Position numbers and translations under genes: made by a program
The notes under the pieces: generated by a model
What the model saw: the letters and a program-made list of their open reading frames with translations, nothing else
Told to the model about the DNA's origin: nothing
Databases searched by the model: none
DNA from: Kastovskya adunca ATA6-11-RM4
GTDB lineage: Bacteria; Cyanobacteriota; Cyanobacteriia; Cyanobacteriales; Coleofasciculaceae
Reading direction: 5' to 3'
DNA: 64,000 bases
Assembly (NCBI GenBank): GCA_019359445.1
Contig: JAHHHJ010000014.1
Span: 62,001 to 126,000, forward strand
Shown: piece by piece, positions 18,977 through 21,516 of the stretch
Numbering within the stretch: the stretch's first letter is position 1
How the letters are laid out: the number at the start of each line of letters is the position of its first letter

Positions 18977-19235
18977 CGCAATTAAGGCTCCAACACTTAC
19001 GCCAGTATCATCTGCTTCCAGGATACGAGCGAAACCAGAAACTTGCCCACCCCACTCAAGGTAGACAAATCACTAGTTAATTATGACGGTAATCCAGCCC
19101 TAGCGCCAAGTCAAAATAGCGATCGCCTAATTATTTGTTACTTTCTACGGCTTTAGTTTCTTAGCGAACTGCTCATATCAGTCTAGCCAAACTAATGTGC
19201 GATCGCGCCCTCCCATCCTTCTCCAACCCCCGACC

Positions 19236-19511
19236 TTAATAAAGACCAGAGGACTCTAATGACCGTATTAAAGCTTCAATAAATCTTTTGCCCAACAGGC
19301 TTGATAATAACCCACATGACACAACCAGCAAGGCTGCAATCCCTATGTTAAGCAAGTTCAATTCTGTAGACGATAACAAGTAAGGGATGAGTACCATAAA
19401 AGTACCAAGTGCAGCTCCTCCCAGAAATCGGTAGACAACCTTAGCGGCAGAATGCTTTTTAAGATCAGTATCTTCCGAAGCCATATAAGGGTTCTTTAAC
19501 TCCTTAGTCAC
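19236..19511 (-). CDS. Small membrane protein, two TM segments
   Basis: 91 residues. A polar N-terminus is followed by two hydrophobic segments (GGAALGTFMVLIPYLL at about 31-46 and IGIAALLVVSCGLLSSLLG at about 57-75) and the amphipathic end FIEALIRSLESSGLY. No named domain is recognised, but similar two-TM proteins are widespread in cyanobacteria. It precedes the tautomerase gene's stop by 24 bp on the same strand (the tautomerase is upstream), so the two may be co-transcribed. Confidence 0.55.
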   Translation of the reverse strand: MTKELKNPYMASEDTDLKKHSAAKVVYRFLGGAALGTFMVLIPYLLSSTELNLLNIGIAALLVVSCGLLSSLLGKRFIEALIRSLESSGLY

Positions 19512-19535
19512 ATAATAGCCCGCTGCAACGAAGGG

Positions 19536-19757
19536 TTAGGTTTCAGTGCGTGACTGAGGGGCTTGCTGTTTCTTCCAGTCGTCGGTTAGTAGACCAGAAA
19601 AACCCCAGTCTTCGTCTGCAATTTCTTGAATGACAATATGCGTATGCTCTGGCTTCTTCCCAAGTATACGCACCAGTGAAGCGGTCACCTCTTTGACTAG
19701 TTGAGCCTTTTGGTCTCTCGTCGCACCTTTCGTAATCTGGATGTTCACGTATGGCAT
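19536..19757 (-). CDS. 4-oxalocrotonate tautomerase family enzyme
   Basis: The start is set at 19757 so that the protein begins MPYVNIQITKGATRDQK; removal of Met exposes Pro1, the catalytic base of the tautomerase superfamily. AAAGGAATT lies 6 nt before this ATG, whereas an upstream in-frame ATG would bury Pro1. The 73-residue protein includes LVKEVTASLVRILGKKPEHT and VIQEIADEDWGFSG, consistent with the family fold of beta-alpha-beta units that oligomerise. The in vivo substrate is unknown. Confidence 0.85.
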   Translation of the reverse strand: MPYVNIQITKGATRDQKAQLVKEVTASLVRILGKKPEHTHIVIQEIADEDWGFSGLLTDDWKKQQAPQSRTET

Positions 19758-19781
19758 GGTAATTCCTTTGTGGGTGTTCAA

Positions 19782-20087
19782 TTCGCGAAAGCTTGAACAG
19801 CTTAGGCAAGGGTTAAACTCATGAAACCTAAGGCAAAAGTCAGCGGTTGCAGCGCAATATTAGGCGGCTCTAAAGTTAGAGGTGATGCAACGTCCCTCGC
19901 CTATTACACTATGAGCGATCGCATCTCATGCAAAGTCACCCTATCATCGGGTGGAGTGGCAGTTTAAGTCATTTGGGGAAATGGCAGAGTATCAGAAAGC
20001 TATTGAGCGAAGTATTTTTCTTGATTAGCGGTGGAGGTCAGTGGTAACAGACTCGAAGATCATCAGTCCATCCGGAGTAATAAGGTA
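19782..20087. other. Intergenic region, about 306 bp, no gene seen
   Basis: It lies between the nuclease operon's end and the tautomerase start, both on the minus strand. It has one HIP1-like GCGATCGC near 19915. No hairpin with a T-run was found for the nuclease operon. Confidence 0.4.
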
Positions 20088-20762
20088 TTAGGTCGATGGT
20101 TCACTGGTGTTCAGTGAGTTCAATAACTGCTCTGTAACTTCAATCAGGTTTAGCACAATGTTTGGTGTGAGGTGGGTCGTTTTGAAACCATGAGCAATAG
20201 CATTACGCAACGAAAAAGCATTCATTAGCGATTGATATTCAGCTTTAGAAATCACCCCTTCAGTTGCCAACTGCTTCAACAAACGAAGCGGTTCGGATCG
20301 CTGCAAGTCAAGTCCTTCTTTATTAGCAAGAAGTCTTAGAGTTGCCTCAGCAAGAGACCAGGCATAAAGGATAGATGATTCTGGATGATGAACTGTAAGC
20401 TCTCTAGCTACTTGTAATTGTGACTTTATCTCATGTTCTTGAAGAGAACCTTCTACTTTTGCAGAGTATAGGGCATCCTCTGGGTTAGTCATTACCAATT
20501 CAACTCTCCAACCCGGATGATCTTCCACTGCTTGAGCTAACCCCCGTAGATATTGTGCAGAGGCAATTGAAGGACGTGACTTTACCTCAATAACAACTTT
20601 TTCCTCTCCTCGACGTACTATCATGTCAGGACGGTAGCTCCGCAGGAAATCAGGCAACTCTTCAGGTTTGGGAGAGAGTAGCACCTCGTAACCTTTCTGA
20701 CGATATTCCGTCACTAGTTCGAGTAATCGCGATCTTTCCAATTGCTCAGTTCGGGCATCCAT
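20088..20762 (-). CDS. AHJR-like restriction nuclease domain fused to HEPN-type domain
   Basis: 224 residues. The N-terminal domain (about 1-100) has a PD-(D/E)xK arrangement: YRPDMIV with D46, then VVIEVKSRPS with E59 and K61, as in REase AHJR-like nucleases. The C-terminal domain (about 115-220) is helical, with YAWSLAEATLRLLANKEG and SLRNAIAHG. The latter holds R186 and H191, an Rx4H motif as in HEPN RNases. The ATG overlaps the stop of the RusA-like gene as TAATG, and GGAGGTGA sits just upstream, so translation is coupled. Two nuclease-type modules in one protein plus a RusA partner suggest a defence or repair function, which is inferred. Confidence 0.75.
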   Translation of the reverse strand: MDARTEQLERSRLLELVTEYRQKGYEVLLSPKPEELPDFLRSYRPDMIVRRGEEKVVIEVKSRPSIASAQYLRGLAQAVEDHPGWRVELVMTNPEDALYSAKVEGSLQEHEIKSQLQVARELTVHHPESSILYAWSLAEATLRLLANKEGLDLQRSEPLRLLKQLATEGVISKAEYQSLMNAFSLRNAIAHGFKTTHLTPNIVLNLIEVTEQLLNSLNTSEPST

Positions 20763-21184
20763 TAAACAATCACCTCCTGGTCAGGGGCATCAGTTACCAC
20801 AATGTGTAAGAATTCATTACCTCTAGCAAAGCCTTCTGCTAGGGTCGGAGTTATATTTTCTACTTTAAAGTTGCCTGACAAATCTCTTTTTCTTACCAAG
20901 ACATCAGTTATTTGGTTGTCATCAACATATGCCAGACCAATGATGGCGTCTTGAATTGGCTTAACTATGTTGTCTACATCCATTGCAACCGAATCATAGA
21001 AGTACGTCACCTTAAGCATAACTAGCCCAATAGCTGGCGGCTGAGCTGAAGACCAGTATTTTTCTGCTTCTTGTCTAACCGTAGCTTTCCAAGCTCTAAG
21101 CCTTTCACGCCTACGAGCTTGTTGCGATACTGGGGGACCATCCACTATGAACTCAAATGTCGTCAATGGGAGAAGCCCTAACAT
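20762..21184 (-). CDS. RusA-family Holliday junction resolvase-like protein
   Basis: 140 residues from the ATG at 21184; a TTG six codons upstream is possible. The RusA signature is visible: basic helix QQARRRERLRAWKATVRQEA, then DSVAMDVDNIVKPIQDAI (D69, D71, K75) and AYVDDNQITDVLVRK (D88/D89). These match the catalytic carboxylates and Lys of E. coli RusA. The E. coli protein is prophage-encoded, but here no phage genes are nearby. The partner gene overlaps its stop codon by one base, so the two proteins probably work together. Confidence 0.8.
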   Translation of the reverse strand: MLGLLPLTTFEFIVDGPPVSQQARRRERLRAWKATVRQEAEKYWSSAQPPAIGLVMLKVTYFYDSVAMDVDNIVKPIQDAIIGLAYVDDNQITDVLVRKRDLSGNFKVENITPTLAEGFARGNEFLHIVVTDAPDQEVIV

Positions 21185-21422
21185 GCTTGACAAAAGCAGC
21201 AATCTATGTATCTAAAATGGGGCGAAGGCGATCGCATCTTTCCAATCAAACTCTACTAGGAAAGAGCGATCGCGATTCTAACTAGGCGATAGAGGGAATA
21301 AAGAAGACAACATGCCAAAATCATAGCCCCAAGAACAGGACTGGAGAGCTTCGACGAGATTGTCGCTCAGTTTGTGGAAGCCTAGATTTGGGTCAAAGGC
21401 GATGTACACCTACAAAAAAAAT

Positions 21423-21516
21423 GACCCGGAGTCCACGCCTGTCACAAGCATCCCGTATTGCTGCTACCTTCCGGTTCTGACAAGATTTGGGCGTTGTGAC
21501 CGCGTAGGTCCAGGTC
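21423..21516 (-). ncRNA. ffs: Signal recognition particle RNA (small bacterial SRP RNA)
   Basis: On the minus strand the sequence contains GTCAGAACCGGAAGGTAGCA followed by GCAATACGGG, the conserved helix 8 with a GGAAG-type tetraloop and the asymmetric internal loop that binds Ffh. The ends pair (GACCTGGA at 21516-21509 with TCCGGGTC at 21430-21423), as do CGCGGTCACAA and TTGTGACAGGCG inside, giving the expected single hairpin of about 94 nt. A run of eight T follows at 21413-21420 as terminator. Bacterial SRP RNA with Ffh targets membrane proteins. Ends are estimated from pairing. Confidence 0.93.

What the first reader, a model, noticed from the sequence alone, without database searches (positions are those of the whole stretch)
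20088..21184. Coupled RusA-like resolvase and REase-HEPN fusion: a candidate two-gene nuclease system
Seen: a RusA-type ORF (D69, D71, K75, D88/D89) whose stop overlaps, as TAATG, the ATG of a protein with an N-terminal D46...E59-V-K61 restriction-like core and a C-terminal R186-x4-H191 in a helical context. Known: RusA resolves Holliday junctions, AHJR-like REases cut DNA, HEPN domains with Rx4-6H often act as RNases in toxin and defence systems. Inference: the proteins act together, perhaps in phage defence or in repair, and the HEPN part may be a conditional effector. No phage genes, transposase or methyltransferase surround it, and it sits next to the SRP RNA gene.
Basis: partly seen in the sequence, partly recalled or inferred. 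Interest (0 to 1): 0.62.

Follow-up and report, generated by a model that had tools for sequence, protein, structure and literature searches.

The report
RusA paired with Hjc-like–HEPN nuclease
Two overlapping bacterial genes, one for a DNA-junction-cutting enzyme and one for a protein that joins a second junction-cutter-like domain to a likely RNA-cutting domain, travel together across distant bacteria, which points to an undescribed two-part system that may link damaged or invading DNA to RNA cutting.

Summary
P0002 (20762-21184, -) is a RusA-family nuclease: Pfam E 3.6e-9, E. coli RusA fold Z 10.7, catalytic residues in 47-48 of 48 relatives. P0001 (20088-20762, -) is an AHJR-like (Hjc-type) REase fused to a HepT-like HEPN domain. 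R186 and H191 are kept in 46 of 47 relatives; the REase D46/E59/K61 less strictly. In 386 cyanobacterial genomes, 33 of 41 P0001 relatives have RusA directly upstream. Two independent plasmid searches hit the same six records, all alphaproteobacterial. Pairs also occur in Poribacteria and Latescibacterota, but not in 50,697 phage records. The window's pair sits in a ~2.3-kb insert that family relatives lack. AHJR-HEPN fusions were reported in 2013; I found no report of the RusA pairing in the papers held. Phage defence is not supported by neighbours, mostly housekeeping genes. RusA is not a classical antitoxin: AHJR-HEPN persists without it in at least six genomes. Best guess: a branched-DNA-processing complex whose paired HEPN domains act as a conditional RNase; the DNA-RNA link is inferred, not shown.

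The parts
20762..21184 (-). RusA-family endonuclease gene (140 aa from ATG; probable conserved start is the in-frame TTG at 21166, giving 134 aa)
   Evidence: Pfam RusA E 3.6e-9, PHROG RusA 1.7e-12, AlphaFold model pLDDT 88 matching E. coli RusA 1q8r at Z 10.7, next unrelated 5.4
20088..20762 (-). AHJR-like REase-HEPN fusion gene (224 aa)
   Evidence: Pfam AHJR-like E 2e-48; AlphaFold model pLDDT 86.6, pTM 0.52
20463..20756 (-). N-terminal AHJR/Hjc-like PD-(D/E)xK domain, aa 3-100; D46, E59, K61
   Evidence: alpha-beta core in the model; VRR_NUC 4qbn Z 9.1, archaeal Hjc 1gef Z 7.5; sequence profile hits to Hjc 2eo0, 1hh1 are weak
20097..20450 (-). C-terminal HEPN helical bundle, aa 105-222; R186-x4-H191 at the end of the long helix 173-190
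   Evidence: 2hsb HEPN Z 12.7, HepT 6m6w Z 12.7, Csm6 Z 12.0; R186 and H191 each 46/47
20760..20764 (-). TAATG stop/start overlap joining the two reading frames
   Evidence: read in the sequence; overlapping frames in most HEPN-bearing relatives
19084..21418 (.). segment absent from family relatives: ~2.3-kb accessory insert at the 3' side of the SRP RNA gene, carrying the pair, a tautomerase gene and a 91-aa ORF
   Evidence: in relatives the flanks 17.5-19.1 kb and 21.4-22.4 kb align with a separation of about 10-210 nt
21420..21516 (-). SRP RNA gene (ffs), neighbour only
   Evidence: Rfam RF00169, 59 bits; no SRP RNA near the pair in 12 relatives

Best explanation
RusA and the AHJR-HEPN protein form one branched-DNA-processing complex. 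Shown here: they are encoded in overlapping frames, inherited together, and each domain is under purifying selection. Strongly indicated by residues and fold: RusA is an active junction-cutting nuclease. Inferred: the Hjc-like domain binds branched DNA (four-way or fork structures) as a dimer, cutting it only in lineages with an intact E-x-K. Inferred: this brings two HEPN domains together, and because HEPN RNases work as dimers, RNA cleavage is switched on or relieved when such DNA accumulates during damage or foreign-DNA replication. The module is an accessory, horizontally moving stress or genome-protection unit, not the cell's main resolvase: the host also has RuvC.
For: Two folds of the Holliday-junction resolvase kind sit in one unit. 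RusA catalytic site nearly invariant: D69 47/48, D71, N72, K75, P76 48/48, D89 47/48. HEPN R186/H191 46/47 and W135, E139 47/47. REase E59 kept in only 34/47 and K61 in 39/47, which suits a binding role in many lineages. Linkage: 33 of 41 AHJR places have RusA upstream on the same strand; 31 genomes hold both, out of 38 and 33, hypergeometric P 1e-36. Identical six plasmid records in independent searches. Median dN/dS 0.19 REase, 0.21 HEPN, 0.13 RusA; distance correlations with RusA 0.91 (REase) and 0.96 (HEPN). Matched segments lie 60 nt or less apart in 29 of 29 HEPN-bearing pairs but in none of four pairs whose AHJR protein lacks HEPN, so close co-expression tracks the HEPN domain. Host RuvC present.
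Against: No interaction, DNA-binding or RNase data exist. A complex prediction could not be run, and the AF2 model leaves the domain arrangement uncertain (pTM 0.52). AHJR-HEPN persists without RusA in at least six cyanobacterial genomes and two Latescibacterota copies, so RusA is not strictly needed. HEPN is absent in four cyanobacterial genomes that keep RusA and AHJR.
Confidence: 0.38

Rival explanations
1. A purely DNA-directed recombination or repair complex: RusA cuts junctions, the Hjc-like domain recruits it, and HEPN is only a dimerisation or regulatory bundle.
For: Housekeeping neighbourhoods and stable sites within genera and families; HEPN can be lost while RusA-AHJR stay; one Agrobacterium plasmid copy lies next to ligD and imuA/Y-family polymerase genes.
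Against: R-x4-H is kept in 46 of 47 relatives down to about 20% identity, more strictly than the REase site; patchy, horizontally moving and often decayed copies do not look like core repair.
Confidence: 0.3
2. An anti-phage (abortive infection) system: phage replication forks or junctions trigger RusA/AHJR, and HEPN then arrests the cell.
For: HEPN-REase fusions are proposed for this role (PMC3710099); accessory, mobile distribution in about 10% of cyanobacterial genomes; absent from phages; one rhizobial plasmid copy lies beside AbiEii and Mrr-type genes.
Against: No enrichment of defence genes among 128 neighbours of about 34 loci; no convincing PADLOC match for the proteins; conserved housekeeping sites within genera.
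Confidence: 0.22
3. A toxin-antitoxin pair in which RusA neutralises the HEPN toxin.
For: Small overlapping two-gene unit with a HepT-like C-terminus; tight coupling only where HEPN is present.
Against: AHJR-HEPN with an intact R-x4-H persists where RusA is absent or broken by a stop (G097); no MNT gene identified beside the pair; the AMP-acceptor Tyr of RX4HXY is Phe in the window and Tyr in only 2 of 47.
Confidence: 0.06

Closest known systems
AHJR-like REase fused to HEPN-M (Anantharaman et al. 2013, PMC3710099; Pfam PF18743)
   Same: Same domain families in one protein: an archaeal-Holliday-junction-resolvase-like REase fused to a DUF86/HepT-type HEPN domain.
   Different: RusA is not mentioned in that paper's held text (it was not among the papers holding both RusA and HEPN). 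Here the fusion is one half of a conserved unit with RusA.
E. coli RusA (1q8r)
   Same: Fold Z 10.7 over 107 residues and the four catalytic residues.
   Different: A separate subfamily: no match in 50,697 phage records; linked to an AHJR partner rather than carried by a prophage.
HepT/MntA type VII toxin-antitoxin (PMC7641770)
   Same: HepT-like HEPN bundle with R-x4-H.
   Different: Fused to a REase, no MNT partner identified, and the modified Tyr is usually absent.
Archaeal Hjc / VRR_NUC nucleases
   Same: N-terminal fold Z 7-9.
   Different: Catalytic E-x-K eroded in many members; combined with HEPN and RusA.

Membership tests
RusA endonuclease family | RusA fold | tested here: met
   Z 10.7 to 1q8r, next unrelated 5.4; Pfam over its cut-off
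RusA endonuclease family | catalytic Asp70, Asp72, Lys76, Asp91 | tested here: met
   D69/D71/K75/D89 align and are kept in 47-48 of 48
RusA endonuclease family | Holliday-junction cleavage | not testable with these tools
   needs biochemistry
AHJR-like REase (PF18743) | profile match over the curated cut-off | tested here: met
   163.5 bits against 26.1
AHJR-like REase (PF18743) | intact PD-(D/E)xK site | tested here: met
   D46, E59, K61 present in the window protein; in relatives E59 34/47, K61 39/47
HEPN superfamily | HEPN helical bundle | tested here: met
   Z 12.7 to 2hsb and 6m6w; the sequence profiles alone fall below Pfam cut-offs for P0001, over it for the Azospirillum relative
HEPN superfamily | R-x4-6-H motif | tested here: met
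   R186-x4-H191, 46/47 each
Type VII HepT/MntA toxin-antitoxin | RX4HXY with modifiable Tyr | tested here: not met
   Phe193 in the window; Tyr in 2 of 47; motif defined in PMC7641770
Type VII HepT/MntA toxin-antitoxin | adjacent MNT antitoxin gene | tested here: not met
   the gene directly beside it is RusA; no nucleotidyltransferase family shown in the neighbour tallies; AbiEii at one rhizobial locus only
known anti-phage defence systems (PADLOC-DB 2.0.0) | profile match | tested here: not met
   best hit RTasHEPN E 0.0047 over 23 residues; none for RusA

The most novel reading that the evidence does not exclude
Branched DNA as a direct switch for RNA cleavage: dimeric binding of the Hjc-like domains (with RusA) to a four-way junction or fork assembles the HEPN active site, making a junction-activated RNase that couples stalled or foreign DNA replication to growth arrest.
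Probability: 0.18. Interest if true: 0.82.

Novelty: new variant of a known kind. Interest (0 to 1): 0.52.

Why it matters
RusA is generally regarded as rare and prophage-borne (PMC1193525). Here a RusA subfamily is tied to a bacterial AHJR-HEPN protein across at least four phyla and is found in no phage record searched. If the complex exists, it would join two junction-nuclease folds and an RNase in one small, portable unit and make a clear question testable: can DNA structure gate RNA cleavage?

Tried and rejected
Link to the SRP RNA: rejected, not conserved, and the pair lies in an insert missing from relatives. Integrase or att-type insertion: no convincing direct repeats; imperfect 27-nt inverted arms near both ends of the insert contain the common GCGATCGC octamer. 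Viral origin: 14 IMG/VR RusA relatives carry no AHJR neighbour; no viral P0001 relative. Replacement of a missing RuvC: rejected, host has RuvC. A RelE-like C-terminal extension in one cyanobacterial family: not confirmed (Gp49 E 0.016; nothing useful in PDB or NCBIfam). Literature: no paper found joining RusA with AHJR, HEPN or HepT in the library held, which lacks most subscription journals. The structure search of the whole P0001 model is dominated by HEPN; the REase part was tested only through lower rows.

Full report
What is there. On the minus strand, 21184-20762 encodes a RusA-family protein and 20762-20088 an AHJR-like REase joined to a HEPN domain; the two frames share one base (TAATG). 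Pfam gives AHJR-like at E 2e-48 and RusA at 3.6e-9; the HEPN profiles are weak for this protein (HEPN_RiboL-PSP 3.9e-5, HepT-like 3.6e-4, both under cut-off), but HepT-like passes its cut-off for the Azospirillum relative. AlphaFold models (pLDDT 86.6 and 88.2) settle the folds: the C-terminal bundle matches HEPN proteins including HepT (Z 12.7), the N-terminus matches VRR_NUC (9.1) and Hjc (7-7.5), and the partner matches E. coli RusA (10.7, next unrelated 5.4). Z near 12 for a helical bundle is not decisive alone, but the top rows are nearly all HEPN proteins and the R-x4-H motif falls at the end of a long helix.

Is the pairing real? Searching the same 386 cyanobacterial genomes with each protein gave 38 genomes with AHJR-HEPN relatives and 33 with RusA relatives; 31 have both. 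Of 41 AHJR places, 33 have RusA upstream on the same strand within 1 kb. Apart from two weak hits, one RusA place is unpaired (G169:C7, L108, with an eroded DSERT in place of DxDN). In 72,556 plasmid records, each protein independently found the same six alphaproteobacterial records; in the three inspected, the genes are adjacent. Pairs also occur in Poribacteria and Latescibacterota. Neither protein has a relative in 50,697 phage records. Frame overlaps are mostly 1 or 4 nt, also 8 or 13.

What is conserved. Over 48 RusA relatives the catalytic residues are almost invariant; over 47 partner proteins R186 and H191 are kept in 46 each, while E59 and K61 are kept in 34 and 39. All three domains evolve under purifying selection, and pairwise distances agree closely, though shared ancestry alone also produces such agreement. 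Four genomes have AHJR without HEPN, and there the genes have moved apart (gaps of 62-725 nt between matched segments), whereas all 29 HEPN-bearing pairs lie within 60 nt. Close co-expression thus seems to matter when HEPN is present. This is a small sample and the four may be one lineage.

What argues against simple readings. AHJR-HEPN with an intact R-x4-H persists without RusA in G229, G191 (two copies), G153, G085, G280 and G344, none of which has a RusA match elsewhere. G153 and G085 hold it at a site where related species (of the same genus for G153, of the same family for G085) keep RusA. In G097 RusA carries an in-frame stop while the partner is open. RusA is therefore not an indispensable antitoxin. 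The AMP-acceptor tyrosine of HepT is replaced by Phe, and no MNT partner was identified. The host has RuvC.

Genomic setting. In the window genome the pair, a tautomerase gene and a 91-aa ORF lie in about 2.3 kb that relatives lack: there the SRP RNA gene is followed directly by the orthologue of the 18599-18976 gene. Among same-family genomes in a 39-genome set, only one other holds a clear copy (30% identical), plus one partial. So the window copy was gained horizontally, or lost by most of the family; its closest relatives found (72-74%) are in other families. Within some genera and families the pair keeps a fixed site among housekeeping genes, and PADLOC models hit few of 128 neighbours. 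Truncated and frameshifted copies occur. This is the pattern of an accessory unit, not a core repair gene, and gives no support for defence islands except on rhizobial plasmids.

Mechanism. Shown: domains, residues, linkage, selection. Inferred: RusA cuts junctions; the Hjc-like domain supplies branched-DNA binding, with cutting only where E-x-K survives; HEPN, which needs a dimer to be active (general knowledge of the family), is brought together by that binding. The DNA-to-RNA coupling is the least secure step. Known: AHJR-HEPN fusions were noted in 2013 (PMC3710099), together with a proposal that HEPN RNases linked to restriction systems are released when the DNA-targeting part is overwhelmed. 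New here, as far as the held literature shows: the RusA partner, its breadth, and the order of conservation, RusA and HEPN above REase.

Noticed in passing
L024, L025, L026, L027, L029, L113 (398-416 aa proteins of one cyanobacterial family): The AHJR-HEPN protein carries a further ~180-aa C-terminal extension whose end looks RelE-like by eye; only Gp49 at E 0.016 supports this.
   Followed up: partly
window 21166: In-frame TTG at codon 7 of RusA is the likely true start: most close relatives begin there and do not align upstream.
   Followed up: partly
window 19236-19781: A tautomerase gene and a 91-aa ORF of unknown family share the insert that relatives lack.
   Followed up: no
window 19100-19126 and 21266-21292: 27-nt imperfect inverted repeats (81%) near the two ends of the insert, containing the common cyanobacterial GCGATCGC octamer.
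   Followed up: partly
L087 6652-8586, L088 8247-10256: Rhizobial plasmid copies of the pair have a GHKL-type ATPase (HATPase_c_3) gene downstream on the opposite strand at both loci.
   Followed up: partly
L104, L105: Partner proteins with a shortened, eroded REase and a lost HEPN histidine still overlap or abut an intact RusA, next to a conserved 1169-aa ATPase-like gene.
   Followed up: no
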